Assembly (NCBI GenBank): GCA_903895845.1
Contig: CAITVK010000138.1
Location: 1 to 53,330, forward strand
Length of the DNA: 53,330 nucleotides
Reading direction: 5' to 3'
From: an uncultured Chitinophagaceae bacterium
GTDB taxonomy: Bacteria; Bacteroidota; Bacteroidia; Chitinophagales; Chitinophagaceae
Part shown: positions 17,431 to 53,330 of the stretch, piece by piece
Position numbering within the stretch: the first letter of the stretch is position 1
Layout of the letters: each line of letters starts with the position of its first letter
Position numbers and translations under genes: made by a program
The notes under the pieces: model-generated
Databases searched by the model: none
What the model was told of the DNA's origin: nothing
What the model saw: only the letters and a program-made list of their open reading frames with translations

Positions 17431-17645
17431 CCATTCCCTCACTTGGTTCCGTCATTTCCTCACTTGGTTCTGTCGTTCCCTGCTTGGTTCCAGCATTCCC
17501 TCGCTTGGGTCTAGCATTCCCTTGCTTGGTTCCAGCATTCCCTTGCTTGGTTCCAGCGTTCCCTTGCTTGGTTCTAGCATTTCCTTGCTTGGTTCCAACG
17601 CTCACTCGTGCAAGGGAACGACAGAACCAAGCAAGGAAATGACAC
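17431..17645. repeat. 21-bp tandem array A with inverted end copy
   Basis: The core CTTGGTT recurs at 17442, 17463, 17483, 17504, 17525, 17546, 17567 and 17588, steps of 21 bp with one of 20. The unit is close to CTTGCTTGGTTCCAGCATTCC. The segment 17614-17643 is an inverted copy of 17451-17480 (28 of 30 bases), so the whole array could fold as a long stem. It lies between the 5' end of the VIT gene and the 3' end of a small membrane-protein gene. The 7-codon open frame through it is a by-product of the period. Confidence 0.95.
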
Positions 17646-17727
17646 TTTTGCGGCCAATTTGAATGATTATGAGTGAGTAAACAGCAAACGAGATACCACC
17701 AAACCTTTATATAGTAAGGGTTTCAGC

Positions 17728-17760
17728 AAGGAAGGCTTCGATTTAAGCGAAACCTTCCTT
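17728..17760. repeat. Short inverted repeat, possible weak terminator
   Basis: AAGGAAGG-c-TTCG pairs with CGAA-a-CCTTCCTT around a 7-nt loop, 50 bp beyond the 3' end of the minus-strand gene at 17810. There is no strong T-run on either strand, so terminator activity is uncertain. Confidence 0.5.
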
Positions 17761-17809
17761 TGGCAAGAGTATATTGCTAGTTACTGATTTTTGAAGAGGA
17801 GGTGATTTA

Positions 17810-18199
17810 TCAATAGAAATAAGCTAATACTCCTATCGGCATAGCCAAGCTTAATGTCATAAAAAGGAAGTAAAATATTCTATCAACATCAAGACCATCA
17901 CTACCTAAAGACATACTCTTAGGCGGGTTTTTAGGATCGCGTTTCTTTATTTTATGGAAGGTGATCAACATGATTCTCAAAAGAGATAATGAAAACAACG
18001 GGCAAAGTAGAAATAGATATAAATCAGGCTTGGCTGTTGATGATGGTTTATGTAATACCAAACCAGCAATTCCAAATATTAATGCTACTATGAAAAAGGG
18101 GGGAACGAATCTTTGGTCAAAGTGAATTTTTGGAAAGAATAAAAAAGAAAATGGTACAATCATGAGCCCAACTAAAAAGCAATAACCTTCAAAGTCCAT
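17810..18199 (-). CDS. Hypothetical four-helix membrane protein
   Basis: The product (129 aa from the ATG at 18199, MDFEGYCFLVG; the frame reaches 18244 but those residues are polar and AT-rich) has four hydrophobic segments: about 5-22, 32-47, 58-80 and 105-125. A charged loop (HKIKKRDPKNPPKSMSLGSDG) precedes the last helix. I do not recognise a domain or catalytic motif. It follows uvrB by 59 bp on the same strand and may be read from the same message. Its 3' end faces array A. Confidence 0.6.
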   Translation of the reverse strand: MDFEGYCFLVGLMIVPFSFLFFPKIHFDQRFVPPFFIVALIFGIAGLVLHKPSSTAKPDLYLFLLCPLFSLSLLRIMLITFHKIKKRDPKNPPKSMSLGSDGLDVDRIFYFLFMTLSLAMPIGVLAYFY

Positions 18200-18258
18200 C
18201 GTCTTAAATTTAATTTGTAATGAAACAAAATTATTAATTTTCAATTATCCATTATCAA

Positions 18259-20295
18259 TTACCTCATCCCCTCCAACTCCTTTTGCAACCTAAACATCTC
18301 ATCCCTTAGTGTGGCGGCTTCCATAAAGTTTAGGTCTTTGGCGGCACGTTCCATCAGCTTCTTGGTTTGGGCAATTGCCTTTTCCATCTGTGGTATGGTC
18401 TTGTAGCTCACCTGTTCTTCGGCGGCCGTGTTCAGTTGTGCATCGCCCATTATTGCATACGGTTTGCTATCATCAAAGCCCTTAATGTCCAACACCGAAG
18501 TCTGTTTCATTATCTGGTCTATCGATTTGTTTACCGTGGCAGGCGTAATGTTGTGTTGAATATTGTAGGCAATCTGTTTCTCTCGGCGGCGGTTGGTTTC
18601 GTCAATGGTGCGTTGCATACTCATCGTCATCTTATCGGCATAGAATATAACTTTGCCATCCACGTTCCTCGCCGCACGTCCTGCCGTTTGTGTCAGAGAG
18701 CGTTCATTACGCAGAAAACCTTCCTTATCTGCATCCAGTATTGCCACCAAAGCCACTTCGGGTAAGTCCAATCCTTCTCTCAATAAGTTTACACCCACCA
18801 AAACATTGATATCCCCCAAACGTAAGGAACGCAATATCTCAATCCTTTCCAGTGTATCTACATCGCTGTGAATGTATTTCGATTTAATGTTTATCCGCCC
18901 TAAGTATTTGTCCATCTCCTCCGCCATCCTTTTAGTAAGGGTGGTTACTAGCACACGGTCGCCTTTTTTCACTGTTTTGTCAATCTCGTCTAATAGGTCA
19001 TCTATCTGATTTACCGAAGGGCGAACTTCTATGGGTGGCTCCAATAATCCAGTAGGTCTTACCACTTGTTCTACTACCACACCGCCTGTTTGTTGCAATT
19101 CATATTCACCAGGAGTAGCACTCACAAAGATGGTTTGCCCTATCAGATTCTCAAATTCATTAAAGTTCAGCGGACGGTTATCCATTGCACTCGGTAGGCG
19201 GAAACCATAATCTACCAACACCATCTTACGACTTCTGTCGCCGCCATACATCCCCGAAAGTTGCGGTATGGTCTGGTGACTTTCATCTATCAGACAAATA
19301 AAATCCTTTGGAAAATAATCCAACAAACAGAAAGGACGAGTACCCGGTTCGCGCCTATCGAAGAAGCGAGAATAGTTTTCTATGCCCGAGCAATAGCCCA
19401 ATTCTCTAATCATTTCCAAATCATATTCCACCCTTTCCTTCACCCGTTGCGCCTCTTCCTTCTTACCCACTTGTTTAAAGTATTCCACTTGTGCCATCAT
19501 CTCATCCTGAATCTCATTCATCACCTGCACCATAATATCCTTTGGAGCGAGATATAGATTTGCAGGAAAAATAGCCGCATTCTCCAAAACCCCAATTCGT
19601 TTGCTAGTCTCTTTTTCCAGGCTTTCAATCTCTTCAATTTCATCCCCAAAGAAGGTAACACGATAGGCGATATCCAGATAAGGCAGGTTAATATCAACCG
19701 TATCACCCTTTACCCTAAACGTTCCCCTGCCAAATTCTCCCTGACTACGTTGATACAAACTATTCACCAATGCGTGCAAGAATCCTTGCCTAGAAATAAC
19801 TTGTCCCTTATGAATCCGTACCACGCCATTAGCAAACTCGGTGGGGTTTCCCATACCATAAATGCAACTAACGCTCGCCACCACCACAATATCACGGCGA
19901 CCACTTAGTAGTTCGCTAGTGGCTTGAAGGCGTAGTTTATCTAATTCTTCATTGATGCTTAAATCCTTTTCTATATAGGTATTGCTCACAGGCATGTAAG
20001 CCTCGGGCTGGTAGTAGTCGTAATAACTTACAAAATACCCCACCGCATTATCTGGAAAGAACTGCTTGAACTCGCCATACAATTGCGCCACCAAGGTTTT
20101 GTTGTGTGTAAGCACGAGGGTGGGACGTTGCGTTGCGGCAATAATATTTGCCATGGTAAAGGTTTTTCCACTACCCGTTACCCCCAATAAAGTCTGGAAT
20201 CTTTCTCCCTCTTCTATGCCTCTCACTAATTGTTTGATGGCGGTAGGCTGATCGCCCGAAGGCTCGTAAGGTGCGTATAATTGAAAGGTCGACAT
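18259..20295 (-). CDS. uvrB: UvrABC excinuclease subunit B
   Basis: At 678 aa it is full length. It holds Walker A GVTGSGKT (38-45), the beta-hairpin YFVSYYDYYQPEAYMP (near 92-107) that inserts into damaged DNA, IYGMGNP, DESHQTIPQ (helicase motif II type), NLLREGLDLPEV and QTAGRAARN (motif VI), and a C-terminal UVR coiled coil (MEKAIAQTKKLMERAAKDLNF) that contacts UvrC. It loads onto lesions from UvrA and positions UvrC during nucleotide excision repair. uvrA and uvrC are not in the window. An exact -7 element ends 4 bp before the ATG. Confidence 0.98.
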   Translation of the reverse strand: MSTFQLYAPYEPSGDQPTAIKQLVRGIEEGERFQTLLGVTGSGKTFTMANIIAATQRPTLVLTHNKTLVAQLYGEFKQFFPDNAVGYFVSYYDYYQPEAYMPVSNTYIEKDLSINEELDKLRLQATSELLSGRRDIVVVASVSCIYGMGNPTEFANGVVRIHKGQVISRQGFLHALVNSLYQRSQGEFGRGTFRVKGDTVDINLPYLDIAYRVTFFGDEIEEIESLEKETSKRIGVLENAAIFPANLYLAPKDIMVQVMNEIQDEMMAQVEYFKQVGKKEEAQRVKERVEYDLEMIRELGYCSGIENYSRFFDRREPGTRPFCLLDYFPKDFICLIDESHQTIPQLSGMYGGDRSRKMVLVDYGFRLPSAMDNRPLNFNEFENLIGQTIFVSATPGEYELQQTGGVVVEQVVRPTGLLEPPIEVRPSVNQIDDLLDEIDKTVKKGDRVLVTTLTKRMAEEMDKYLGRINIKSKYIHSDVDTLERIEILRSLRLGDINVLVGVNLLREGLDLPEVALVAILDADKEGFLRNERSLTQTAGRAARNVDGKVIFYADKMTMSMQRTIDETNRRREKQIAYNIQHNITPATVNKSIDQIMKQTSVLDIKGFDDSKPYAIMGDAQLNTAAEEQVSYKTIPQMEKAIAQTKKLMERAAKDLNFMEAATLRDEMFRLQKELEGMR

Positions 20296-20299
20296 GAAG

Positions 20300-20307
20300 C
20301 AAATTTA
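20300..20307 (-). promoter_or_regulatory. -7 element of uvrB
   Basis: TAAATTTG on the minus strand matches TAnnTTTG exactly and is followed by C. Only 4 bp separate it from the uvrB ATG, so the transcript should be leaderless or nearly so. Confidence 0.65.
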
Positions 20308-20372
20308 GTTAGGAGATATGAGTTATTAATATTAGTTGGAAATGATTTGTGTTGCCAGTCAGGAAGTATTTT

Positions 20373-21272
20373 CTACACTGCCAAAATGGTATTTATCTTT
20401 TCGCTTATCTCATTATTAAGGCTTCTTGAAACAGGAATCAATTCATCGGTGCCATCCAGATGTAGTTTATAACCAGTGGCATTCCCAGAAATGTGGCGGA
20501 TATAATTCAGGTTAACCAGATAACTCCTATGGCAGCGGTAGAAATTATCGAAAGCGCCCAACTTTTCTTCAGCCCCCTTCAACGTTCCTCTTACCAACAC
20601 ATTCTTCAACACCTGATTTTCTGTATAAAATACCCTGATATAATTGTCTGCTGCAACAATATACATCACCGCAGATGGGTTAATCGGCACATCGCCACTA
20701 CTTGTATCTTCTCCAAAAAAGATTAGTTTGTTGTTTACTTGTTCTTCTACAAGAATCTCATGGGGCTCAGCTATGGACAGCTTTGCTTCTAGCACTTGTG
20801 CATTGGCAGAATACGTTTTTAGCAATCGATATTGCCTGATAAAAACAAATATCAAACTAGGAAAAGTACCAACAACAACTGTTTGAAGTAACCATCTTAC
20901 GAAAATAGACCAGGTAAGTGGTTGTTTGCAAACAAAGTGATCGGTCAGGCTATTAAGTGTTCCAATAAAAAACAATATCCACATCTGCATGGCAACTTCG
21001 GCACCTACAGTCCATCTTTCTTCCAAAATACTGTTTCTCCGATTGATGAGTTTGAATATTACGAGATTCAGATTTACTCCTAAGAAAGTAACCATTGCAA
21101 AAATGAAAGCATTGCGAATGATTACTGCCATTGAAAAGTTATCCAACCCAAATGGGCGCAGCATTACCAAAACAAAAAACACACTTATTCCAGCTACTGA
21201 CGCAGCTTTTATGTTCGGCAAATCGAACTGTACCAGATTACTGGGATAAGGTTGCTTTAGTATTTTGAACAT
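20373..21272 (-). CDS. Membrane-anchored LytTR-domain regulator
   Basis: The 299-aa protein has four TM helices in its first half (about 25-45, 50-75, 92-110, 125-145), a short linker, and a C-terminal LytTR DNA-binding domain (about 195-295: VMYIVAADNYIRVFY, VRGTLKGAEEKL, FYRCHRSYLVNLNYI). LytTR proteins bind direct repeats upstream of target promoters. There is no receiver domain, so the signal must reach the DNA-binding part through the membrane domain, a pattern common in Bacteroidota. It is downstream of the acyltransferase gene by 41 bp on the same strand; its targets are unknown. Confidence 0.9.
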   Translation of the reverse strand: MFKILKQPYPSNLVQFDLPNIKAASVAGISVFFVLVMLRPFGLDNFSMAVIIRNAFIFAMVTFLGVNLNLVIFKLINRRNSILEERWTVGAEVAMQMWILFFIGTLNSLTDHFVCKQPLTWSIFVRWLLQTVVVGTFPSLIFVFIRQYRLLKTYSANAQVLEAKLSIAEPHEILVEEQVNNKLIFFGEDTSSGDVPINPSAVMYIVAADNYIRVFYTENQVLKNVLVRGTLKGAEEKLGAFDNFYRCHRSYLVNLNYIRHISGNATGYKLHLDGTDELIPVSRSLNNEISEKINTILAV

Positions 21273-21313
21273 ATTGTTTGTAATTCCGGTTGCTAAATTA
21301 TTGGTTTTATGGA

Positions 21314-22198
21314 TTAAGATAGTGTCATCTCTTTAAACTTCTCTGCATCATATTTGTGTTTCCAACGCTTGTGCGTCCACAAATAATTGGAAGGACGTAG
21401 CCTTATCTGCCCTTCCAGAAAATCTCTGTAAGCAATTGTAATTGCTCCTTTGGGCAATGTTTTAGGCTCGGTGGTGTATAGACTAAACTCCGATTGATAA
21501 TATCCGCGCTTTATCCGATAGGTGGTTGCAAACACAATGGCGGTATCTTTTGCAACTGCCATCCGCTCCAAACCTGTAACAAAGGGTGCCATTCTTCCAA
21601 AAAAAGAAATCCAATAGGCATTTTCCAAATTGCTAGAGTTTTGGTCGCCACCCAAAGCCAATGCATATCGTCCCTTGGAATATTTAAAAAATTCCCTGTT
21701 GAAGTTTGCAACAGAAACCATCCCTGTCCCAAATCTTGAACGCATATTATACATAATCTTACCAAAAATGGGACTAGTCAAAGGCTGATAGACCCCAACA
21801 AAGGGATAAACAAGGTTGGCGGCATAAGCCAGATTCAAGTATTCCCAGTTAAAGAAATGCCCACCATGCAATTGAACGTTTTTTCCAGTAGCATACAAAT
21901 CATCTAACAACTCGTAGTTGCATTTAAAACGCTTATTCAGTTCCTCTTTGGTGATAGAAAGCAACTTGATTGTCTCCAGAAACGTATCAAAGAGTTGCTG
22001 GTACATGTCTTTTGCAATAGCTATTCGCTCCTGTTCTGTCTTTTCCGGAAAAGCCGTCAAGAGGTTATTCATCACCACTTCTTTTCTATACCCTACAAGA
22101 TGATATAAGATGAAATAAAAGAAATCGCTCAGCCTATAAATAATAAACCAAGGCAATAACGAAATCAAGTATAGAGTGTAATAAACGATATAATACAT
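21314..22198 (-). CDS. LpxL/HtrB-type lipid A acyltransferase
   Basis: The 294-aa protein has an N-terminal membrane anchor (residues 1-35) and the HX4E active-site motif H114-FFNW-E119. It should transfer a secondary acyl chain to lipid A or a related acceptor on the cytoplasmic face of the inner membrane. The near-consensus CACTTTTG lies just upstream of the ATG. It is distinguished from glycerol-phosphate acyltransferases by the N-terminal anchor and length. The next gene upstream on the same strand is an MsbA-like exporter (133 bp away), which makes lipid A modification plus export a reasonable inference. Confidence 0.88.
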   Translation of the reverse strand: MYYIVYYTLYLISLLPWFIIYRLSDFFYFILYHLVGYRKEVVMNNLLTAFPEKTEQERIAIAKDMYQQLFDTFLETIKLLSITKEELNKRFKCNYELLDDLYATGKNVQLHGGHFFNWEYLNLAYAANLVYPFVGVYQPLTSPIFGKIMYNMRSRFGTGMVSVANFNREFFKYSKGRYALALGGDQNSSNLENAYWISFFGRMAPFVTGLERMAVAKDTAIVFATTYRIKRGYYQSEFSLYTTEPKTLPKGAITIAYRDFLEGQIRLRPSNYLWTHKRWKHKYDAEKFKEMTLS

Positions 22199-22331
22199 CG
22201 GGCAAAAGTGTGAAGCAAATATATTGTTGAGCAGTTATAAGTAAATTCAAATTGAAGAAATAACTACTTGGGACGAAAACCTACCGTTTTCTATACTACC
22301 CTTATATCTATGAGGACTACCTAAAAGGTTT

Positions 22332-24116: not shown

Positions 24117-24245
24117 GAAATTATTTTAGGTTGCACTAATGAAATGCAATAATGAGGTATTTATATCAAATACACAAACTATTGGTGTTTAAACGCACAA
24201 TGCTACTGAAAAGTTTTGAGAGAGAATTTGCTTTAAAATATAATT

Positions 24246-25619: not shown

Positions 25620-25647
25620 CATGCAATTACTTATCAAAATATTATCG

Positions 25648-33416: not shown

Positions 33417-33581
33417 TGTGAAGTTATTGTATATCCGTTAAAGCTTATTCAAGTACCAATTGTTGCTTATTAATTCAAATATATAATTCTATTGATTCCC
33501 AAATGATAAAAAGTAACAAAATAGACGCTTTCTTTTAAACAGAGGTTGAAAACAGTTATTTTTTGACTCTTTTGATCTTGC

Positions 33582-33770
33582 AGTATTTCTCTCACTGTCA
33601 ACCGGATTTCTCTCACGGTATGAAATCAAGCATCCACTGCTAGCGGGATTTGCAATATTGTTTGAAGTAAATCTCTTACGGTTATCCGGATTTCTCTCAC
33701 TGGTTGCAGTTAACCCCTTGCGGATAGAAGTAAACCAGAAACTGATAGAAAGTAAAGAGTAGAAACGATT
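33582..33770. repeat. 21-bp tandem array B, degenerate
   Basis: ATTTCTCTCAC or decayed versions start at 33585, 33606, 33648, 33669, 33690, 33711 and 33732. Every gap is 21 bp or a multiple (one slot, near 33627, is unrecognisable). The unit is close to ATTTCTCTCACGGTTATCCGG. Units differ greatly, yet the phase is exact. It lies between the 5' end of the CDF gene and the 3' end of the hypothetical gene at 33857. Confidence 0.85.
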
Positions 33771-33856: not shown

Positions 33857-34219
33857 TCAATAAACTTCCATTCCACTCTCGTTTTGTTGTTTCAATGACC
33901 AGTCGCCGGTCATTTTTATTTCCAACCAAAGATTACCACTCTTCCGAAAGAAGTTTGTTTTTAGTCCGAAGTTTTCAGCAAACTTCTGAGCTATCTGCTT
34001 GATGGAATTGTTTTCATTAATACTGATAACGCCCTCGGGGCTATCTTTTATGATATCTCCTAGTTTTAGTTGTCCAATAGGCGTATTCCTTCTGAAACCA
34101 GTTGAGGTAGAAGTAGCAATGGGGTCTAACTTAAAATCTATTTTAAGATAGGGGAAGGCATTATTAAATTCCTTCTTTATATCGTCAATTAATCTATCTT
34201 TCGAAATAATAATCTTCAT
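33857..34219 (-). CDS. Hypothetical 120-aa cytoplasmic protein
   Basis: I do not recognise a family. The 120-aa product is soluble, with no signal peptide. A basic N-terminus (MKIIISKDRLIDDIKKEFNNAF) is followed by a Ser/Thr-rich turn (ATSTSTGFRR), IGQLKLGDIIKDSPEGVISIN, then a helix (SIKQIAQKFAENFGL) and a beta end (NLWLEIKMTGDWSLKQ). Charged and hydrophobic residues are spaced as in a real folded domain. It is monocistronic, with array B beyond its 3' end and the hemN promoter region behind it. Confidence 0.6.
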   Translation of the reverse strand: MKIIISKDRLIDDIKKEFNNAFPYLKIDFKLDPIATSTSTGFRRNTPIGQLKLGDIIKDSPEGVISINENNSIKQIAQKFAENFGLKTNFFRKSGNLWLEIKMTGDWSLKQQNESGMEVY

Positions 34220-35871: not shown

Positions 35872-35990
35872 ATACTTCTCTCCAACATAAATACCTTTTT
35901 TTCTCAGAGAAGATACCTTTATTCAAAAAGAAGATACCTTTTCTCTCAGATAAGGTATCTTTATTCAAAAAGAAGTAACCTTTTCTCCTA
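35872..35990. repeat. 21-bp tandem array C
   Basis: ATACCTTTT-type cores occur at 35872, 35891, 35913, 35934, 35955 and 35976, with steps of 19, 22, 21, 21 and 21. The unit is close to ATACCTTTATTCAAAAAGAAG. The array fills the gap between convergent hemN and an ABC exporter gene, and the last unit runs over the ABC stop codon at 35988. Confidence 0.88.
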
Positions 35991-38104: not shown

Positions 38105-38330
38105 GAAGTTGTTTAAACTTCTTTATGTAATAAAACTGATTCCAACAGTTAATGATTTTGGCTAAAAAAACAAAAAAGTGGGAATCATCAAAGAAGATAA
38201 AGACCGTCATTTAATTATTCTTTTTTTAGGTGTAAGAAAACGGGGCTTTGAGTAGAAGGCATGTTTGGCAAAAGTTTTCTTACTAGTGCCTAAGCGTATT
38301 AAAACAGCTTGTCAGTGGCGGTTGAGAGGA
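38105..38330 (+). mobile_element. 5' fragment of the same IS5-family element
   Basis: The left terminal repeat GAAGTTGTTTAAACTTC (38105-38121) is followed by sequence parallel to 75-279 of the first copy. Translated, 38215-38330 gives about 39 residues close to the start of the transposase (LIIxFLxVxKRGF ... KTxCQWR), with one in-frame TAG. Similarity stops sharply after CAGTGGCGG, where unrelated sequence begins. Only the left quarter of the IS is left. Confidence 0.85.
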
Positions 38331-38335
38331 GGAAT

Positions 38336-38424
38336 TGGATGAGATAAAGGCGTATTACGAAGGATTTACAACGGAGAGAAGCCCAATAGAACTGATTAAT
38401 TATCACGAGAAGTACCCGGTGTAA
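38336..38424 (+). pseudogene. Truncated 3' end of an unidentified gene
   Basis: Directly after the IS fragment, a frame of 28 sense codons runs to TAA at 38422, reading EEELDEIKAYYEG then FTTERSPIELINYHEKYPV. Composition and codon use look coding, but there is no start and a stop lies just upstream. It is most simply the tail of a gene cut by insertion or deletion at the IS. I do not recognise the parent protein. Array D starts 4 bp after its stop codon. Confidence 0.5.
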
Positions 38425-38428
38425 CGCG

Positions 38429-38638
38429 TTTATATACTTCCGTCCAACATTTATATCTCTTTTCCCAACTTTTATATATAAATCTCTGGCTTTTATATAT
38501 CTCCATCCAAGATTTATATCTATTTTCTCAACTTTTATATATAAATCTCCAGCTTTTATATATGTTTTCCGAACATTTATATATGTTTTTCCAACTTTTA
38601 TATATAAATGTGAAACTTTTAGGTATTAATATATGAGG
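38429..38638. repeat. 21-bp tandem array D
   Basis: TTTATAT starts at 38429, 38450, 38471, 38492, 38513, 38534, 38555, 38576 and 38597, with a last variant at 38618: every step is exactly 21 bp over ten units. The unit is close to TTTATATATAAATCTCCAACT. The array fills the space between the truncated gene tail and the 3' end of the rfaE2-like gene. Confidence 0.96.
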
Positions 38639-38657
38639 AAGGCTTTTTGATTGATTT

Positions 38658-39152
38658 CTACCCCAGCCTTCTTATCTTTTCGATGATACCTGTCGTAGAA
38701 AAGCCTTGCACTATCGGATTGATAACAACCCTTCCGCCATTAGCCATTACTTCTTTTGCACCCACAATCTGTTCTATGGTATAGTCGCCACCTTTCACTA
38801 AAACATCGGGCAGAATAGTGGAAATCAGGTTTAATGGCGTATCTTCTTCAAATATTACAACGGCATCCACTATTGCCAAACTAGCCAACAATAATGCCCT
38901 GCTTTGTTCATTATTAATTGGGCGCTCCTCTCCTTTCAATCTTTTGGTACTAGCATCGCTATTTACCCCAACAATCAATAAATCGGCCTCTCTAGCCGCT
39001 TGAGATAACGAAAATATATGTCCTTCGTGCAGGATATCGAAACAACCATTGGTAAAAGAAATGGTCTGACCTTTCAAACGCCATCCATTTACCGCCGACA
39101 TCAAAGTTGGAAGGGTATATATCTTAGTTGCTATTGCATCAATTTGTTTCAT
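38658..39152 (-). CDS. rfaE2: Heptose 1-phosphate adenylyltransferase (RfaE2-type)
   Basis: The 164-aa nucleotidyltransferase matches the C-terminal half of HldE and stand-alone RfaE2. It holds GCFDILHEGH (H42-x-x-H45), GVNSDASTKRLKG, RPINNEQSRALLLASLAIVDAVVIFEEDTP and the STT loop near the end (GFSTTGIIEKI). It forms ADP-D-glycero-beta-D-manno-heptose for LPS core. The kinase half (RfaE1) is not in the window. Its start overlaps the end of the flippase-like gene by 14 bp, so the two are translationally linked. Confidence 0.93.
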   Translation of the reverse strand: MKQIDAIATKIYTLPTLMSAVNGWRLKGQTISFTNGCFDILHEGHIFSLSQAAREADLLIVGVNSDASTKRLKGEERPINNEQSRALLLASLAIVDAVVIFEEDTPLNLISTILPDVLVKGGDYTIEQIVGAKEVMANGGRVVINPIVQGFSTTGIIEKIRRLG

Positions 39153-43939: not shown

Positions 43940-44228
43940 CTTTTACTGACCTCAGTAAGTCTTTTACTGACCTCAGTAAGACCTGTAGTTTACCCAGTAA
44001 CTCTTTTACTGACCTCAGTAAGACCTGTACTTTACTCAGTAAGTCTTTTACTGACCTCAGTAAGACCTGTACTTTACCCAGTAACTCTTTTACTGACCTC
44101 AGTAAGACCTGTACTTTACTCAGTAAGTCTTTTACTGACCTCAGTAAGACCTGTACTTTACCCAGTAACTCTTGTACTGACCTCAGTAAGACCTGTACTT
44201 TGGTCAGTAACTCTTGTACTGACCTAGT
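43940..44228. repeat. 21-bp tandem array E with 42-bp higher order
   Basis: CAGTAA starts at 43953, 43974, 43995, 44016, 44037, 44058, 44079, 44100, 44121, 44142, 44163, 44184 and 44205: thirteen units, all exactly 21 bp apart. Units alternate between two forms (TTACTGACCTCAGTAAG and CTGTACTTTACCCAGTAAC types), giving a 42-bp super-unit. TTACTGA-CC-TCAGTAA within one form is a perfect palindrome. It lies between the 3' ends of metK and the small gene at 44368. An open frame across it (43793-44227) is an effect of the period. Confidence 0.97.
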
Positions 44229-44367: not shown

Positions 44368-44667
44368 CTAAATATGGTATTTGCCATTGCTCCGTGTAGT
44401 TCTTGAAGGAGATTCTAGTCGCTGTTGAGCAGTATTGACCAATTCTAAATGTTTGCCTGTAAAAACGAGTGGTTCTTCTTTTTTCTTAATCAAACTAATA
44501 CCTCGCACACCAATCCTTGCCTGTTGGTATGTAAGATTTGAAAATGCATGTGCATCCAGTCGAATAAGTGGAACACTATCACTCGATTGAGAGAACAGGG
44601 GTGTTGAAAATATCAAACAAACTATAGTATTCAGTAGCCAATTTAAATTTTCTAGATTCATTCCCAT
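44368..44667 (-). CDS. Hypothetical small secreted protein
   Basis: I start at ATG 44667 (a second ATG is at 44661), since it opens a signal peptide (MGMNLENLNWLLNTIVCLIFSTPLFSQ). The mature part is about 72 aa (SSDSVPLIRLDAHAFSNLTYQQARIG then VRGISLIKKKEEPLVFTGKH), basic and without Cys or known motif. The frame reaches 44718 but those residues are not signal-like. No family recognised. It could be periplasmic or exported. Confidence is limited by its size and lack of homologue knowledge. Confidence 0.5.
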   Translation of the reverse strand: MGMNLENLNWLLNTIVCLIFSTPLFSQSSDSVPLIRLDAHAFSNLTYQQARIGVRGISLIKKKEEPLVFTGKHLELVNTAQQRLESPSRTTRSNGKYHI

Positions 44668-44993
44668 GCTTTTTAATGTTAGAAATTTTATTGTATTCTG
44701 AAACAACTTCCAATCCAATTCAGACTCTCCTACATTGACTCAGGGTTGTATTTTGCGATTTTTTCATGTTAATACATCTTAATAACCGATTAAAGTTTGA
44801 AACGGGTATAGTAGCCGCAGTTATTAGTCTTGAGTAAAACAGATTAATTAATTCTTATGAAAAAGGATCATAAATAAAAATTAAATACCTAACTTTATCT
44901 TCGTCTATGATTTACACTTTTGTAGCCGAAATCATTTGCTGATGGGAATCAATTTTATTGTCTAAATAAGTTTAACAAGCTCAATATAAGTTT

Positions 44994-46531: not shown

Positions 46532-46555
46532 ACTGTAATGATAATATTATTGCTG

Positions 46556-46584
46556 CAAAAGTAAAAAGTAATTGTAAAATACAA
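46556..46584 (-). promoter_or_regulatory. Promoter of clpS-aat
   Basis: On the minus strand TTG (46584-46582) is followed after 18 bp by TACTTTTG (46563-46556), an exact TAnnTTTG with the right -33 spacing, and C. The ATG is 25 bp downstream. Confidence 0.75.
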
Positions 46585-46754
46585 TGCAACGGCAGTAAGT
46601 TTTAATAGAAGCTTATTCAGGCAGATGTTTTCAGACTAGTAGAACAGTGTTTTTATTGCACTTAAATATTCATTTAGATAAAGTTTCAATAATCGCCTGA
46701 ATGTTTTTTATGGTAATGTAGGATTAGTAACAAGTTTAATAAACTCCTTTACGC

Positions 46755-46762
46755 TACTTTTG
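46755..46762 (+). promoter_or_regulatory. -7 element of the cytochrome c maturation genes
   Basis: TACTTTTG is an exact match, 53 bp before the CcmC-like gene at 46815. TTTA near 46734 may be a weak -33. Confidence 0.6.
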
Positions 46763-46814
46763 TCCCTTGTAAATTGAAACGATTGTTCTTTTGTTTATTC
46801 TAAAATAAAATTGG

Positions 46815-47486: not shown

Positions 47487-47487
47487 T

Positions 47488-47718
47488 ATGAATACAATGA
47501 AAAAGATTATCGCAGCGATTGTTTTTGCCTTTTTAAGCGTTTATACCAACGCACAAACTTCAGTAGGTACGCCACCTGTCACCACCGACCTGATGCGTAG
47601 TAACGGGAAAATTCTGGTAGTAGTAGCCGTGATAGTCATCATTATGATTGGTTTCTTTGGCTACTTGATCAGTGTAGACAAGAAGCTGACTAAGCTGGAA
47701 AAAGAAGGGATCAAATAG
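47488..47718 (+). CDS. CcmD-like small membrane protein
   Basis: The 76-aa protein starts at ATG 47488, 1 bp after the upstream stop; a second ATG lies at 47497 and a TTG at 47470. A signal peptide (to about VYTNAQ) precedes a short segment and a TM helix (ILVVVAVIVIIMIGFFGYLI), with a charged tail (SVDKKLTKLEKEGIK). This is the CcmD layout: a small anchor that stabilises CcmC and CcmE interaction. Assignment leans on position and topology because CcmD sequences are weakly conserved. Confidence 0.7.
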   Translation: MNTMKKIIAAIVFAFLSVYTNAQTSVGTPPVTTDLMRSNGKILVVVAVIVIIMIGFFGYLISVDKKLTKLEKEGIK

Positions 47719-47760
47719 AACAATGATCGCTCATAATTCATAACTCATAACTAAAAAAGT

Positions 47761-49167
47761 ATGTACAGTTTTTTTGAGAGTGTAGAAAAGAGTTTTGACA
47801 AAGCCTCCGCATATACCAAGTGGGACAAAGGGCTTCTGGAACAGATTAAAGCCTGTAATAGCATCTATAGTATGCGTTTTCCGGTGAAGATGGACGATGG
47901 TAGAATTGAGGTGATTGAAGCGTACAGGGTACAACACTCTCAGCACAAAACACCGTGTAAAGGTGGGATAAGATTTAGTAATGAAGTGAATCAGGATGAA
48001 GTGATGGCGCTTGCCAGCTTGATGACCTATAAATGTGCTATTGTAAATGTGCCTTTTGGCGGTGCGAAGGGGGGCATTAAGATTAATCCTAGAAAACATA
48101 GTACCTACGAACTGGAAAAGATAACAAGAAGATATACTGCAGAATTAGTTAAAAAGAATTTTATTGGTCCAGGCATTGATGTTCCTGCGCCTGATTATGG
48201 TACTGGTGAGCGTGAAATGGCGTGGATTGTAGATACATATTCATCCTTGAAACCTGGTGAAATTGATGCGGCAGGTTGTGTTACAGGGAAGCCAATATCG
48301 CAAGGTGGTGTTCATGGACGCAAAGAAGCTACTGGCTTAGGCGTTTTCTTCGGCGTGCGTGAAGTGTGTAATATGCCTGAAGTAATGGCTAAGTTGGGAC
48401 TTACTACTGGCATTGTAGGTAAGAAAGTAGTGGTGCAAGGCTTGGGTAATGTGGGGTATCACTGCGCTAAGTTTTTTAGGGAGAATGGGGCGATAGTCAT
48501 TGCAATAGCTGAGTACGAAGGGGCTGTTTACAGTGAGAATGGCATTAATGAAGAAGAATTATTTCAGCATAGAAAAGCAACTGGCTCTGTAAAGGACTTT
48601 GCTGGAAGTACGTTTATTGCCAAAAGCGCAGAGGCCTTGGAATTGGATTGCGACATATTGATTCCAGCAGCTTTGGAAAATGTAATTGATGGCAACAATG
48701 CGCCACGTATCAAAGCAAAGATTATCGGGGAAGCCGCAAATGGTCCTCTTACGCCTGAGGCTGATGAGGTATTTATTAATAAGGGGGTGCTGGTAATACC
48801 AGATATGTACCTGAACGCAGGTGGTGTGACTGTTTCTTATTTTGAATGGTTGAAGAACCTGAGCCACGTGCGTTATGGTCGTTTGGAAAAGCGTTTTACA
48901 GAGAGTATGAACCATCATATTCTTACCGAAATAGAAACACTCACAGGAAAGAAAGCAAGTGTAAAAGCACGCAACTTGATAGAACATGGGGCCGATGAAA
49001 TTGACCTGGTACACAGTGGACTAGAGGAAACAATGATTAGCGCTACTCAGGAAATAATGGAAATATGGTTGAGTAATCCAGCAATTCCAGATATGCGTAC
49101 TGCGGCTTATGTATGTGCTATTGATAAAGTAGGCATCAGTTATACCGAATTAGGTATTTTCCCATAA
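47761..49167 (+). CDS. Glutamate dehydrogenase (Glu/Leu/Phe/Val family)
   Basis: The 468-aa enzyme interconverts glutamate and 2-oxoglutarate plus ammonia. It has HKTPCKGGIRFSNEVN (62-77), the catalytic Lys region VPFGGAKGG with K103, PAPDYGTGEREMAWI, and the coenzyme fold VVQGLGNVGYHCAKFF near 222. It is of the length of catabolic hexameric enzymes (about 430-470), and NAD versus NADP is not decided. It follows the CcmD-like gene by 42 bp on the same strand and may be in the same transcript; functionally they are unrelated. It is ended by a bidirectional hairpin. Confidence 0.94.
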   Translation: MYSFFESVEKSFDKASAYTKWDKGLLEQIKACNSIYSMRFPVKMDDGRIEVIEAYRVQHSQHKTPCKGGIRFSNEVNQDEVMALASLMTYKCAIVNVPFGGAKGGIKINPRKHSTYELEKITRRYTAELVKKNFIGPGIDVPAPDYGTGEREMAWIVDTYSSLKPGEIDAAGCVTGKPISQGGVHGRKEATGLGVFFGVREVCNMPEVMAKLGLTTGIVGKKVVVQGLGNVGYHCAKFFRENGAIVIAIAEYEGAVYSENGINEEELFQHRKATGSVKDFAGSTFIAKSAEALELDCDILIPAALENVIDGNNAPRIKAKIIGEAANGPLTPEADEVFINKGVLVIPDMYLNAGGVTVSYFEWLKNLSHVRYGRLEKRFTESMNHHILTEIETLTGKKASVKARNLIEHGADEIDLVHSGLEETMISATQEIMEIWLSNPAIPDMRTAAYVCAIDKVGISYTELGIFP

Positions 49168-49191
49168 GAATTTGAGAGGTTGATTAATAGG

Positions 49192-49225
49192 AGGGGTTTG
49201 AACTTTTGTTCAACCCCTTTTTTTA
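49192..49225. terminator. Bidirectional hairpin terminator
   Basis: AGGGGTTtGAAC pairs with GTTC-AACCCCT around TTTT, followed by a T-run. It lies between the convergent glutamate dehydrogenase and lactonase-like genes. Confidence 0.9.
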
Positions 49226-49247
49226 TGCAACAGGCTTGCCCTGAACT

Positions 49248-50375
49248 TTAATTTGCAGGAATAATTTTCAAACAAACAGGACTACCCACTTCAATTGTAT
49301 TATCTATCCGACTCAATAAACCTGTTTGCTTATTTCTTTTAAAGATGGTGATATTGTCTGACTTCTGATGCCCTATCAATAGGTAAGAACCAGTAGGATC
49401 AATGGTAAAGTTGCGCGGCATCACACCTCCCGTGGGCTGCATAGCTATAAAAGTAAGCTTGCCATCTGCCTTGTTTAAACTGTAAGTGGCAATTGTATTG
49501 TAGGCACCTCTGTTTGTAGCATAGAGGAACTTTCCGTCTGGCGATAAATGGATATCTGCACTTGCTCTAGTTGTGCTTCCGTTGTCTGTTGTATCTATAA
49601 TAGCGGTTTGTAACTTCTGTAACTGTTCCTTATCAACAGAAAAAGCATCTATATTACCGCTCAACTCATTTATAGTATATAGAAACTTTCCATCAGGGCT
49701 AAATGTAAGGTGTCTCGGACCATTGCCGGGCGTGCTGTAGGTAACAGAGTCTTTAGTTGGTGTTAGCGGATTGGTAGCAGATGCATCAAAAGCGTATCTG
49801 TTAATTTTATCTGTTCCTAAATCTGTTGTAAACAAATATTTTTCATCCAGAGATAATACTGCGGTGTGCACATGCGGTTCTTTTTGTCGCTGTGGATTGA
49901 TACTGCTCCCTGTGTGCTGATAAAACTGGCGGACAGCATCAATGCTTCCATCCTTTTTGATGGGCAATACAGATAAGCTTCCACTCCCATAGTTGGCCAT
50001 AAACAACCACTTATTGGTTTTATCTACCGTAATGTAACAAGCACCAATGCCATTGTTTGGTTGTTTGTTGATGAAGGACAACGTTCCTGTTCTTTTATCA
50101 AAATGATAGGCTGCCGCCTCGCTGCTTGTATTATTTCTGTTGTCCTCAATGGCATAAACAAAGGATTCATCTTTACTGATGGCAAGGTAGGATGGGTTAT
50201 TGGCCTTAATCTGACTGATGAGTGCCGTTTTGCCATTGGTAGCGTCAAAATTATACACGTATATCCCCTCGCTTTTGCCGTTAGTGTACGTTCCAACCAA
50301 TAAATAATAGCGCTGCTGCTGGCTGAAAGAAACCGTAAAAATTAAACAGCATAAACATAAAAACAGGAGTCGCAT
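49248..50375 (-). CDS. Lactonase-family seven-bladed beta-propeller
   Basis: The 375-aa protein has a signal peptide (to about TVSFSQ) and the Pgl/YbhE fold: LLVGTYTNGKSEGIYVY at the start, and repeats of the form SPDGKFLYxxN (LTFSPDGKFLYTINELSG, HLSPDGKFLYATNRGAYN). YbhE-type relatives are 6-phosphogluconolactonases, but a secreted copy cannot act on a cytoplasmic intermediate; the periplasmic substrate is probably another sugar lactone. Monocistronic or linked with the next gene upstream (30 bp away). Confidence 0.88.
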   Translation of the reverse strand: MRLLFLCLCCLIFTVSFSQQQRYYLLVGTYTNGKSEGIYVYNFDATNGKTALISQIKANNPSYLAISKDESFVYAIEDNRNNTSSEAAAYHFDKRTGTLSFINKQPNNGIGACYITVDKTNKWLFMANYGSGSLSVLPIKKDGSIDAVRQFYQHTGSSINPQRQKEPHVHTAVLSLDEKYLFTTDLGTDKINRYAFDASATNPLTPTKDSVTYSTPGNGPRHLTFSPDGKFLYTINELSGNIDAFSVDKEQLQKLQTAIIDTTDNGSTTRASADIHLSPDGKFLYATNRGAYNTIATYSLNKADGKLTFIAMQPTGGVMPRNFTIDPTGSYLLIGHQKSDNITIFKRNKQTGLLSRIDNTIEVGSPVCLKIIPAN

Positions 50376-50405
50376 AAATCAAATTTTGATGGGAAAAGAA
50401 GGTTA

Positions 50406-50927
50406 TTATTTATACGGTCTATAAATTGTAAAACTTCCGCGTAGGATGTTTGATAAGTCCAATTCACTTAATCCCACCTTTCTGCCAAAGTCGCTTGTGT
50501 TCTGATGCGCAATAATGTACTGTCCTTTTCCTTGCACTTCATAGATTACAGCTGTGTGATGCTCCAGATTCGACATGATTGTCATGTTCCCAATTACTTT
50601 CTTAATCTCAACGCCTTCAAATTGTATGATGTCGCCCGGATAAATGCTGTCTCTTCTATAATCCACTACTTTGCCATATCTATACTCTTTGTCCCAGATT
50701 GCCCCCGATTCATTCAGTGGCTGTGCTGCCAGATCCCAACATTCTCCCCTGCCAACCTTCTGTTTTAAATGTGCAGATACAAATGAGACTATCTGCTGAT
50801 TGAGTTGTGGGATACTATCACTATTTATAGTTTTATTTAATTGATTATCATTTATATTCAGTCTATTATTTGAAAAAGAGAATAAAATAAATTGACTAAG
50901 TAAAATGCCTATCCAAGCTGCTTTCAT
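50406..50927 (-). CDS. Secreted cysteine-protease-fold protein (BBC1/AIM3-like)
   Basis: The 173-aa protein has a signal-like N-terminus (to about 20) and a domain with GRGECWDLAAQPLN (C63), SIYPGDIIQFEGVEI, NLEHHTAVIYEV (H124) and YIIAHQN (H141/N143). The C-H-N order and spacing resemble CHAP/NlpC-P60-like cysteine peptidase folds and, more closely, the BBC1/AIM3 cysteine-proteinase-fold family. It could cut peptide or peptidoglycan in the periplasm, or be a non-enzymatic member. It lies upstream of the lactonase-like gene by 30 bp. Confidence 0.65.
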   Translation of the reverse strand: MKAAWIGILLSQFILFSFSNNRLNINDNQLNKTINSDSIPQLNQQIVSFVSAHLKQKVGRGECWDLAAQPLNESGAIWDKEYRYGKVVDYRRDSIYPGDIIQFEGVEIKKVIGNMTIMSNLEHHTAVIYEVQGKGQYIIAHQNTSDFGRKVGLSELDLSNILRGSFTIYRPYK

Positions 50928-50997
50928 TGATTTAATTTGGCAATGAAAGTAATTGGAATTGAGTAATAGAAAATATTTTTAGCGAATACTTAACCAC

Positions 50998-51078
50998 AAA
51001 GCCCACAAGTACATACAGAAAGAACGTTTAGTATATTCGATACCAAGCATAATTCCGGGTAGTTTACTTGTGGGCTTT
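50998..51078. terminator. Long-loop inverted repeat, likely terminator
   Basis: AAAGCCCACAAGTA (50998-51011) and TACTTGTGGGCTTT (51065-51078) are perfect 14-bp inverted arms with 53 bp between. It lies just past the stop of the second amylase gene. The T-run sits at the right arm, so on the plus strand it is a terminator, and the minus strand has a shorter one. The loop is unusually long. Confidence 0.6.
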
Positions 51079-51091
51079 TTTAGTTGCTGTT

Positions 51092-52468
51092 TTACGGCAA
51101 ATAACTATAAACCTTATAGTCCCAAGGCTTCAAATCAAACTGTTGCCCATCTGATATTGTTTCTGCTTTATTACTGAAAATTTCAGTTGCCTTTCCTGAT
51201 AGGGTATGGTTGGAGAGGGTTGCGGTAACTGCATCCTTACTCAGGTTCAATACCACCAGCACTTTTGCCCCATTATTTTCACGGGTGTAGGCAAAAACCT
51301 TATCGTCGGCACTACTTTTTATCTTGTTGTAGCTGGCGTTAGCTGCCAATGCTTCATTGTTTTTTCTAAGTGTCAGCAATTTGGAATAGAAGCCCGCACG
51401 TGCATATTTTCCAAAAGGAATGGTGTTTTTATAAAAGAAACTGATGCTATCCAGATAAGGTTCTTCCTGACTGCTATAAATCAATGGTAAAGAGCGTTTC
51501 ATTGTTTGTGTCAGCACTGCAAATGGCGCATGTGTTATTCCCGGCATCGTTCCATAATCCGATTTATTCCAGCTGTTCTCGTCGTGGTTACTGGTAAAGT
51601 ACATCCGCAACGCATTACTTTGGAAATCGTTGTCCACTTTGTTAATGATGCTATCTAGGGCAGTCGCTTTCACGTTTCCCTTCACTATGTCTTTCATCAC
51701 ATTCAACTCCGGCCAGGTATAAGTAGCATCAAATCCGGCTTCATGAATCCAGGGTTCCGATGCTTCAGCCAACATAAACAGGCTTCTCCCTTTGCGAAGT
51801 GTGGCAATACATTTAGACCAGAAGTCTTTGGGTACTTCAAACGCCACATCGCAGCGGAAGCCGTCAATATGGCTTGTTGTAAGCCAGAATTCCATATCAG
51901 CAGTCATGCTATCACGTAGTTCCTTGTTGTTATAATTCAATTTGCGGGCATCTGTCCAGTCAAAAGGAGACACAGCTTTGTGTGTAATACTGTCACGCAC
52001 ATAGAAGTTGGGATGGGTAGTAAGCCAGTAGTGATCGGCGGCTGTATGGTTTGCCACCCAATCGATAATTACCTTAAAGCCCATTTCGTGGCATTGTTTT
52101 ACCAGTTTGTTCCAGTCTTCCATGGTACCGAACTCCGGATTAATGGCTTTGTAGTTGCGTACGGCATAATAGCTACCCAATGCGCCTTTTCTGTCCAAAA
52201 CACCAATTGGGTTTATCGGCATGAACCATAATGTCTGCACACCCATTTTTTTCAGTCGTGGCAAGTGTTTGGCGAAGGCATTAAAGGTTCCTTCGGGGGT
52301 ATATTGGCGCACATTCACTTCATAGATATTGCCTTGCATAATCCATGCAGGATGCCCGTCAATAGTGGCAGTGTTGGCAATAACTTTGGCAGATTGCTGG
52401 GCATTTGCCACAGAATGAAGGAGCGAAATCGTGAATAATGCGAGGATTATTAATCTTTTCATTTGCAT
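51092..52468 (-). CDS. Secreted GH13 alpha-amylase
   Basis: The 458-aa enzyme has a signal peptide (to about VANAQ; MKRLI at residue 3 is a possible start). The barrel shows region I DWVANH (136-141), nucleophile D207 in GFRCDVAF, acid/base E235 in MLAEAS and D296 in SNHDEN, all four regions intact. No T9SS domain or extra binding module is present, so it is probably periplasmic and acts on maltodextrins that the large surface amylase (1099-4212) releases. The shared upstream palindrome supports joint control. A long-loop hairpin follows. Confidence 0.95.
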   Translation of the reverse strand: MQMKRLIILALFTISLLHSVANAQQSAKVIANTATIDGHPAWIMQGNIYEVNVRQYTPEGTFNAFAKHLPRLKKMGVQTLWFMPINPIGVLDRKGALGSYYAVRNYKAINPEFGTMEDWNKLVKQCHEMGFKVIIDWVANHTAADHYWLTTHPNFYVRDSITHKAVSPFDWTDARKLNYNNKELRDSMTADMEFWLTTSHIDGFRCDVAFEVPKDFWSKCIATLRKGRSLFMLAEASEPWIHEAGFDATYTWPELNVMKDIVKGNVKATALDSIINKVDNDFQSNALRMYFTSNHDENSWNKSDYGTMPGITHAPFAVLTQTMKRSLPLIYSSQEEPYLDSISFFYKNTIPFGKYARAGFYSKLLTLRKNNEALAANASYNKIKSSADDKVFAYTRENNGAKVLVVLNLSKDAVTATLSNHTLSGKATEIFSNKAETISDGQQFDLKPWDYKVYSYLP

Positions 52469-52501
52469 AACAATTGTTTTAGGCGGTAAATATCTGATTT
52501 A

Positions 52502-52520
52502 TTGTGTAAAAAATACACAT
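52502..52520. promoter_or_regulatory. Palindromic putative operator upstream of second amylase
   Basis: TGTGTA-AAAAA-TACACA (52503-52519) is a perfect 6-5-6 inverted repeat, about 35 bp before the amylase start. On the gene strand it is preceded by TATAATG, a weak -7. Arms and spacer length are identical to the site at 1053-1069. Confidence 0.7.
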
Positions 52521-52647
52521 TATAGAAAGATTTTTTTCTGTGCCTTAGAATGTATGCTTTGTTTTCGCCCAAAGACTTAAAGGCTCACAGTGGTACAAAA
52601 GAAAGTGATGTGTTCTTTTGTTTTGTGTATGGTTTAAAGATTGGCAT

Positions 52648-52758
52648 TTAGCGTTTTTTATTGAAGTAAAATAATAATTTGAATTCTTTCTTTAGTTTTT
52701 GTGCAGATAAAGTTCCTGTTAAGAGTAAAAAGCAGATTAATGATAAAAACTTAGTCAT
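52648..52758 (-). CDS. Possible small secreted cationic peptide
   Basis: A 36-codon frame encodes a near-perfect signal peptide (MTKFLSLICFLLLTGTLSAQ) and then a 16-residue tail (KLKKEFKLLFYFNKKR, net charge about +6, amphipathic). An exact TAnnTTTG element lies 71 bp upstream. It could be a cationic secreted peptide, or the 5' fragment of a decayed secreted protein gene. The signal peptide is the strong part; function is inferred. Confidence 0.45.
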   Translation of the reverse strand: MTKFLSLICFLLLTGTLSAQKLKKEFKLLFYFNKKR

Positions 52759-52828
52759 ATAGTATTTAGTTTAAGTAGCGTTCTTTGCTTATATCAATCA
52801 ATAAAACGTGGGTCATTAATGATTTTGA

Positions 52829-52836
52829 CAAATATA
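52829..52836 (-). promoter_or_regulatory. -7 element of the small peptide gene
   Basis: TATATTTG on the minus strand is an exact match to TAnnTTTG, 71 bp before the ATG at 52758. No clear -33. Confidence 0.5.
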
Positions 52837-53008
52837 GATTTTCTGCTTATACAGGAGATGATAAATAATACTGCCTGCCGCCAATGTACCCTCTCGCACA
52901 TGTATTCCGTAGAATGTTATAACATATTATTCTAACCCGTTTGTAAAAAAGAAAAAGGAGGCTTACCTAGCTAGTCGCTCGCTACAATCTAACAGGGCCA
53001 GAGCACGC

Positions 53009-53330
53009 GTTTGATTTTTCTTAAATTGGATTTGATTGTTCTTAAATTGAATTTGATTTGTCCTAGATTGAATTTGATTTGTCTTAAATTGAATTTGATT
53101 TGTCTTAAATTGAATTTGATTGTTCTTAGATTGCATTTGATTTGTCTTAAATTGAATTTGATTGTTCTTAGATTGAATTTGATTTGTCTTAAATTGAATT
53201 TGATTTGTCTTAGATTGAATTTGATTTGTCTTAGATTGTGTATGACACGTCCTAAATTGTGTATTACAAGTGTTTTATCTTGTATTACACGCCTTAAACC
53301 TTGTATTACAAATGTTTTATCTTGTATTAC
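53009..53330. repeat. 21-bp tandem array F, running off the window
   Basis: TTTGATT starts at 53010, 53031, 53052, 53073, 53094, 53115, 53136, 53157, 53178, 53199 and 53220, each step exactly 21 bp. The series continues as TGTATGAC/TGTATTAC variants at about 53241, 53262, 53283, 53304 and 53325. The unit is close to TTTGATTTGTCTTAAATTGAA, drifting to a second form at the right end. The array continues past the window. The stretch 52837-53008 before it has no recognised gene. Confidence 0.97.

What the first reader, a model, noticed from the sequence alone, without database searches (positions are those of the whole stretch)
17431..53330. Six intergenic arrays with unrelated units but one fixed 21-bp period
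Arrays at 17.4, 33.6, 35.9, 38.4, 43.9 and 53.0 kb have no common sequence, yet all repeat at 21 bp; four (B, D, E, F) hold the phase without a visible slip over up to 15 units. 21 bp is two turns of B-DNA, so each unit presents the same face of the helix. A fixed period with free sequence suggests selection on geometry (array-binding protein, supercoiling or curvature, nucleoid structure) or a dedicated mechanism that creates 21-bp duplications. I do not recognise a described family.
Basis: seen in the sequence. Interest (0 to 1): 0.95.

Follow-up and report, generated by a model that had tools for sequence, protein, structure and literature searches.

The report
Genome-wide 21-bp palindromic intergenic DNA arrays
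A bacterium of the Chitinophagaceae group carries an estimated 250 short DNA arrays between its genes that mostly share no sequence but nearly all repeat every two turns of the double helix, as if something in the cell reads the spacing and not the letters.

Summary
All six window arrays beat every shuffle (0 of 200 each). In 843,755 sampled bases of this genome, 54 of 61 strong intergenic tandem arrays repeat at 21n (47) or near-21 (7) bp, extrapolating to about 257 per genome. Five of six congeners sampled separately have 21n arrays; six other genera show none in 400 kb. Taibaiella lutea, a named strain, has 21-, 41-, 43- and 44-bp arrays (5 of 9 strong ones). So the constant is about two or four helical turns, not exactly 21.

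New features: units tend to be self-complementary (38 of 72 arrays against 6 of 32 control repeats), equally on both strands and regardless of transcription direction. Positions are not conserved between species beyond chance. Array families recur at loci with unrelated flanks (11 of 13 pairs). Arrays decayed beyond TRF detection but still phased appear mainly at 21 bp. Curvature, RNA and coding readings found no support.

Best reading: DNA-level rows of twofold-symmetric sites on one helix face, bound by an unidentified protein and spread by recombination. Binding is inferred, not shown. No described family fits.

The parts
17432..17597 (.). Array A: 8 units of 21 bp (CATTCCCTTGCTTGGTTCCAG), with inverted unit pieces up to about 17655
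   Evidence: same family at L194:17594 (own genome) and L134:11083 (G004)
33579..33752 (.). Array B: about 8 decayed units, 21 bp, in phase
   Evidence: 0 of 200 shuffles; highest 21-bp coherence among 341 segments cleared of TRF arrays
35891..35987 (.). Array C: 42-bp unit made of two related 21-bp halves with AAGGTAYCTT-type palindrome, between convergent genes
   Evidence: longer version (about 200 bp) at the same place in G001, none found in G010
38429..38609 (.). Array D: 63-bp higher-order repeat of three 21-bp units, AT-rich
   Evidence: copy at L254:15281 (93% over 180 bp) with homologous flanks, so a segmental duplication
43940..44225 (.). Array E: 42-bp unit (CAGTAA...TTACTG inverted arms), about 13 half-units, downstream of metK
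   Evidence: not found downstream of metK in the 10 other genus loci that reach past the gene, one of them by only 275 bp; relative at L253:1283
53010..53330 (.). Array F: 21-bp units, 15 in view, cut by the contig end
   Evidence: family shared with L190:14482 and with the ends of contigs C22 and C25

Best explanation
The arrays are double-stranded DNA elements: rows of typically 8-9 quasi-palindromic sites, one every two helical turns, so that successive dyads lie on one face of the helix. The most likely working is that a twofold-symmetric DNA-binding protein (or a set of paralogues with different sequence preferences) assembles side by side on them into an ordered nucleoprotein patch, as centromere-binding and iteron-binding proteins do on their repeats. 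Unit number would change by unequal recombination in steps of 21, 42 or 63 bp, whole arrays would now and then be copied to another intergenic site, and spacing would be kept while letters drift. Shown: fixed period, intergenic location, dyad symmetry on both strands in about half of the arrays, no dependence on transcription direction, no positional conservation beyond chance, array-only homology between loci. Inferred: protein binding, cooperative assembly, the recombination and copying steps, selection on spacing, and a role in nucleoid organisation or site marking.
For: Period: 54 of 61 strong intergenic arrays in 843,755 bases. Dyad symmetry: 38 of 72 arrays at p<0.05 against 6 of 32 other tandem repeats (Fisher p=0.0009; the controls held one Taibaiella 44-bp array, and without it 6 of 31, p=0.0013). 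Foldback energy against column shuffles: mean z -2.1 and -2.2 on the two strands, against about -0.1 (9 genic) and -0.5 (23 intergenic) for control repeats. No sense/antisense difference: 21 of 38 tandem-context arrays, mean -0.05. Spacing kept in decayed arrays: 4 segments above 0.35 at period 21, none at the other 15 periods tested. Substitutions per indel 9.2 in arrays against 3.9 in orthologous intergenic DNA (rough). Near-21 variants stay at about two or four turns. Lengths cluster at 160-210 bp. GC 0.368 against 0.292 in other non-genic DNA. Array families at unrelated loci: 11 of 13 same-genome pairs have no flank homology.
Against: No common sequence motif was found across arrays beyond an A preference at two offsets, and 34 of 72 arrays show no significant dyad. 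No candidate protein was identified; HU/IHF-family copies (PF00216) do not track array content: 2 in G000 and 4 in G012, which had no 21n arrays in 132 kb. Arrays are not kept at orthologous sites: 2 of 14 against 7 of 41. Phase retention in decayed arrays is partly ascertainment, since arrays with indels would be missed, and one of the four segments lies next to a called array (L264). The indel comparison uses a gap-prone alignment and a small reference (146 substitutions, 37 gaps).
Confidence: 0.45

Rival explanations
1. Functionless bacterial satellite DNA: some replication or recombination process duplicates DNA in two-turn steps and copies arrays between loci. The palindromes are a by-product, for example of hairpin-driven template switching, and nothing binds the arrays.
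For: Higher-order repeats of 42, 63, 84 and 126 bp; array-only homology between loci (window F and L190 87% over 262 bp; L124 and L191 87% over 235 bp; no flank homology in 11 of 13 pairs); presence varies between close species; no positional conservation; inverted unit pieces in A-family arrays.
Against: Lengths cluster at 8-9 units with few arrays of 5-6; B, decayed to about 46% adjacent-unit identity, and other segments stay in phase; GC above intergenic background; no known process makes 21-bp steps in free sequence (own knowledge).
Confidence: 0.32
2. Arrays of RNA hairpins: transcribed 3'-end or small-RNA elements with one hairpin per 21 nt.
For: Several units read as arm 6, loop 4, arm 6, spacer 5, one with a TTCG loop (L137:16830); foldback z about -2. 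In the first test 15 of 24 tandem-context arrays, and 6 of the 7 with the largest raw strand difference (about 20 kcal/mol or more), favoured the sense strand.
Against: With strand-matched shuffles the sense-minus-antisense difference vanishes (mean -0.05; 21 of 38; 8 of 13 among the large ones). Arrays are not kept out of divergent gaps: 9 of 31 own arrays against 32 of 114 gaps, and 6 of 13 genus arrays against 26 of 130. No Rfam match at the window arrays.
Confidence: 0.1
3. Intrinsically curved DNA, selected as a bend or supercoil-pinning element.
For: Two-turn period; some arrays (D, L116) are AT-rich with phased A/T runs.
Against: Wedge-model curvature is no higher than in column shuffles: mean percentile 0.55, 7 of 71 above 0.95 and 5 below 0.05 (parameters from memory). 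Several arrays are GC-rich.
Confidence: 0.06
4. Remnants of coding repeats (heptad coiled coils are 21 bp per heptad).
For: 21 is a multiple of 3; E and F are inside mechanical ORFs; mean number of open frames is slightly above column shuffles (1.81 against 1.56).
Against: Arrays with any open frame are no more frequent than in column shuffles: 45 of 64 against 48.1 expected. Periods 41, 43 and 44 break the frame. Dyad symmetry is not expected of coding repeats (own knowledge; 2 of 9 genic control repeats had it).
Confidence: 0.02

Closest known systems
Plasmid centromeres and iterons (ParR-parC, omega-parS, Rep iterons)
   Same: Rows of repeats bound by a dimeric protein that assembles along them; parS sites of 7, 9 and 10 iterons on pSM19035; ParR dimers bind one parC iteron each and form a superhelix (passages of PMC5016525 seen). 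Spacing of one or two helical turns is recalled.
   Different: A plasmid centromere is one or a few loci beside its par genes; here there are an estimated 257 chromosomal arrays in many sequence families, with no neighbour gene family recurring at more than 6 of 84 arrays
REP/BIME elements of enterobacteria (recalled)
   Same: Short palindromic intergenic units in rows, hundreds per genome, variable unit number
   Different: BIMEs share one sequence family tied to RAYT transposases; here sequences differ, and only 2 Y1_Tnp matches exist in the genome, not tracking arrays
Borg tandem repeats
   Same: Many independently arisen arrays with different units, examples of 18-21 nt, rapid turnover (passages of PMC9879509 seen)
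   Different: Borg units are perfect, of various lengths, 43-65% inside ORFs and A-rich; here units are diverged, fixed at about two turns, intergenic and often self-complementary
TAACTGA-type heptamer repeats of Beggiatoaceae, Cyanobacteria and some Bacteroidetes
   Same: Mostly intergenic direct repeats spread over the genome (passages of PMC4679880 seen)
   Different: One 7-bp sequence; the 7/14-bp arrays of this genome are a separate class and were left out of the counts

Membership tests
REP/BIME | one shared palindromic consensus across loci | tested here: not met
   54 own arrays in 40 families, 28 single
REP/BIME | linked RAYT/Y1 transposase | tested here: not met
   2 Y1_Tnp matches in G000, 3 in G012, which had no 21n arrays in 132 kb
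Plasmid centromere or iteron | repeats spaced by whole helical turns | tested here: met
   periods 21, 41, 42, 43, 44
Plasmid centromere or iteron | neighbouring par or rep gene | tested here: inconclusive
   Of 10 window neighbours, 7 have Pfam matches, none of them par or rep; 3 small ORFs have none, nor any PHROGs match or above-cut-off NCBIfam match. Among 288 flanking ORFs of 84 arrays the largest recurring cluster has 6 members, not identified. No par or rep family was searched directly.
Plasmid centromere or iteron | bound by a cognate protein | not testable with these tools
   needs binding data
Borg tandem repeats | perfect units, about half in ORFs | tested here: not met
   divergence from consensus 0.118 over 73 arrays; in own genome 47 of 47 strong 21n arrays are intergenic, ORFs made mostly of array not counted as genes; 3 genic ones in congeners
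TAACTGA/STRR heptamers | 7-bp unit of fixed sequence | tested here: not met
   lag-21 or 42 peaks and unit sequences
CRISPR | constant repeats separated by unique spacers | tested here: not met
   units are contiguous, with no unique spacer between them
Structured RNA | strand-specific structure or known RNA family | tested here: not met
   no strand bias over 38 tandem-context arrays; Rfam finds only a tRNA in the window

The most novel reading that the evidence does not exclude
A chromosome-wide system of some 250 sequence-free, two-turn-spaced palindromic arrays that a dedicated oligomerising protein recognises by geometry (dyad spacing and face of the helix) more than by letters, forming nucleoprotein patches along the chromosome, with an associated activity that seeds and copies arrays. 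A second, possibly independent version with units of about 41-44 bp is in Taibaiella.
Probability: 0.25. Interest if true: 0.95.

Novelty: categorically new. Interest (0 to 1): 0.82.

Why it matters
Repeat families in bacteria are usually defined by a sequence. Here the constant is a length of about two helical turns, with frequent dyad symmetry, while the sequence is free, over 1.2% of the bases sampled (10,218 of 843,755). If a protein reads this, it would be a geometry-based DNA mark and a new layer of chromosome organisation. If nothing reads it, there is a mutational process with a two-turn step that the searches made here did not find described. The presence of such arrays in a named strain, Taibaiella lutea KVB11, makes both readings directly testable.

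Tried and rejected
RNA hairpins: raw strand asymmetries (F against L190) looked convincing but vanished against strand-matched column shuffles. The GT-versus-AC mismatch count was discarded because one consensus mismatch is counted once per unit.

Positional conservation: shared neighbours suggested that arrays of unrelated sequence sit at the same genes in different species; the controlled count showed no excess (2 of 14 against 7 of 41).

RAYT link, HU/IHF expansion, curvature, coding, recurrent flanking gene: no support. Phage, plasmid or viral origin: no match for three unit patterns in viral contigs, array E in plasmids or array A in phages; only these were tried.

Copying of array D to L254, and of L200 to L249, as evidence of array mobility: rejected, since the flanks are homologous too.

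The first indel count (array part) was invalid, because local self-alignment found the trivial match; it was replaced.

Literature: ten searches of open-access papers found no description of 21-bp sequence-free arrays. Three of them asked for narrow four-term combinations and returned nothing, and for only 20 of 1,666 and 25 of 288 papers were listed. PMC9426551 (passages seen) mentions intergenic tandem repeats in Planctomycetota. PMC4060949 (passages seen) surveys repeats in prokaryotes without such a class in the passages seen. Subscription papers and preprints were not searched.
Full report
What was checked. The window is a whole contig (C138) of a 4.01-Mb, 138-contig genome whose closest named relatives by UvrB are titled Chitinophagaceae or Bacteroidota bins. 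TRF on the window finds A, C, D, E and F at 21, 42 or 63 bp and nothing else at score 50 or more. B is found only by lag identity. All six exceed 200 of 200 dinucleotide shuffles at any period 8-60.

Genome-wide spectrum. I read 61 stretches, 843,755 bases, of the same genome (window). With TRF score 80 or more, 61 intergenic arrays were found: 47 with a 21n period, 7 near 21 (TRF periods 20, 22, 41, 43, 62, 64 or 65), 4 heptamer (7/14 bp) arrays and 3 others; 2 more lie in genes. Heptamer arrays were left out of the later counts. The extrapolation is about 257 arrays (54/843,755 x 4,012,082). The 54 arrays make up 10,218 bases, 1.2% of what was read, median length 189 bp. Among 73 arrays of at least 100 bp in this genome and its genus, the 16-27 peak is 21 in 51, 22 in 2, 20 in 1 and none in 19; the 36-48 peak is 42 in 59, 41 in 7, 43 in 1, 38 in 1 and none in 5. 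Lengths pile up at 160-210 bp, with a second group near 280 bp.

Relatives. Same genus, 21n intergenic arrays: G004 9 in 146 kb, G006 4 in 131 kb, G003 3 in 22 kb, G007 2 in 140 kb, G011 9 in 180 kb, G012 0 in 132 kb, and 0 (but one 41-bp array) in 39 kb pooled from four further species. Six other genera of the family: 0 intergenic in 400 kb, one genic. Of 78 named loci (1.40 Mb, chosen around uvrB), 2 intergenic 21n arrays of mixed period (L062 96 bp, L085 45 bp), 2 genic ones and 2 near-21 arrays were found. One near-21 array, in L091, belongs to Taibaiella lutea KVB11, a named strain, and is what led me there. Including it, 182,031 bases of that genome gave 9 strong intergenic arrays, of which 5 have periods 44/22, 41, 41, 21 and 43. 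The other four were a 130-bp, a 113-bp, a mixed 8-35-bp and a 14-bp array. A second copy of the L091 array lies about 840 kb away at 75% identity. So the phenomenon is patchy in the family, and the constant is about two or four helical turns.

Symmetry. For each array of 120 bp or more I compared the self-complementarity of its periodic profile with column permutations that keep the repeat. In growing, nested sets it was significant at 0.05 in 18 of 27 (arrays of 84 bp or more), 30 of 48 and 38 of 72. Among 32 other tandem repeats from the same data it was significant in 6 (Fisher p=0.0009; leaving out the Taibaiella array among the controls, p=0.0013). Foldback energy against column shuffles averaged z -2.1 and -2.2 on the two strands, and about -0.1 (genic) and -0.5 (intergenic) in controls. 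Examples: AAACACTAGTGTTT+7 (L193), TTTACTGTACAGTAAA+5 (L236), TTTCTATCAGTAGAAA+5 (L124), CTGTTCACGTGAACAG in a 41-bp unit (L184). In Taibaiella, dyad p was below 0.05 in 3 of 6 arrays tested, two of the six being one family; foldback there was strong on both strands in only one, L282. There is no common letter motif beyond an A preference about 2 and 6 bases from the axis.

DNA or RNA. With strand-matched shuffles, sense folds better in 21 of 38 tandem-context arrays, mean difference -0.05. Own arrays lie in divergent, tandem and convergent gaps 9, 19 and 3 times, against 32, 72 and 10 of the gaps of 200 bp or more; divergent against the rest, p=1.0. In the genus the counts are 6, 6 and 1 against 26, 87 and 17, a lean to divergent gaps (p=0.02; pooled p=0.08) that speaks against 3'-end RNA and could hint at a link with promoters. 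Rfam gives only a tRNA in the window. The symmetry is therefore best read as a property of double-stranded DNA.

Evolution. Arrays are not found at orthologous sites beyond chance (2 of 14 against 7 of 41; small numbers). Array E was not found downstream of metK in the 10 other genus loci that reach past the gene. Array C has a longer, diverged counterpart in G001 and none in G010. Families recur within a genome: of 13 same-genome pairs compared with the arrays masked, 11 had no flank homology, among them F and L190 (F has only one flank), L124 and L191, and L125 and L256; D and L254, and L200 and L249, share flanks and are duplications of a larger segment. Substitutions per indel were 9.2 in arrays and 3.9 in orthologous intergenic DNA (rough, gap-prone alignment, small reference). 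After removal of TRF arrays of score 40 or more, six-unit coherence above 0.35 occurs at period 21 in 4 of 341 segments and at none of 15 other periods from 15 to 30; above 0.28 it is 10 at 21 against 5 at all other periods together. In 157 control segments none exceeded 0.35 and none exceeded 0.28 at period 21. This is partly ascertainment, because only phased arrays can be seen that way.

Mechanism. Two readings remain. In the first, a protein or set of proteins with twofold symmetry occupies rows of sites on one helix face; the palindromes, the two-turn step, the 8-9-unit mode, the indel deficit and the higher GC (0.368 against 0.292) favour it. In the second, the arrays are satellites made by a process with a two-turn step; the turnover, higher-order repeats and array-only homology favour it. 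They are compatible with each other. No protein was identified: HU/IHF and Y1 transposase counts do not track arrays, and the largest recurring neighbour cluster has 6 members among 288 ORFs.

Known families. REP/BIME, CRISPR, heptamer repeats, Borg repeats and structured RNAs each fail a tested defining feature (see the membership table). Plasmid centromeres and iterons are the closest in geometry (PMC5016525, passages) but differ in number and in sequence variety; their gene neighbourhood was only partly tested. Ten literature searches found no description (limits under Tried and rejected). I therefore rate the kind as new, with function open.

Caveats. Gene calls are mechanical ORFs. Only 21% of this genome was read. 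At least three contigs of this genome break inside arrays. The wedge parameters were recalled.

Noticed in passing
L120:1732-1799, L126:10302-10390, L127:8821-8890, L125:11335-11365, L129:9755-9786: A separate class of 7/14/21-bp heptamer arrays (TAAGTCG, ACTTATG, TGAGATA-like), several within a few bases of a mechanical ORF end; similar heptamer arrays occur in other Chitinophagaceae (L058, L059, L068).
   Followed up: partly
window 38326-38825 and L254:15178-16055: Segmental duplication that includes array D and sequence on both sides of it, at about 88% identity.
   Followed up: partly
window 53010-53330, L261:7255-7345 (end of C22), L264:21-309 (start of C25): Three contig ends share one array family, so the assembly probably broke at this repeat.
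   Followed up: no
window 17810-18244, 33857-34219, 44368-44718: Three small ORFs (144, 120, 116 aa) next to arrays A, B and E have no match above cut-off in Pfam, PHROGs or NCBIfam; candidates to look at, or not genes.
   Followed up: partly
L273:7610-7857 (G011): 56-bp intergenic tandem repeat with very strong foldback (z -9.5 and -8.0), outside the 21-bp class.
   Followed up: no
G012 (L143, L144, L150, L232-L235): A congener with no 21n arrays in 132 kb but with 9-bp and heptamer arrays; a natural comparison for finding the gene behind the 21-bp arrays.
   Followed up: partly
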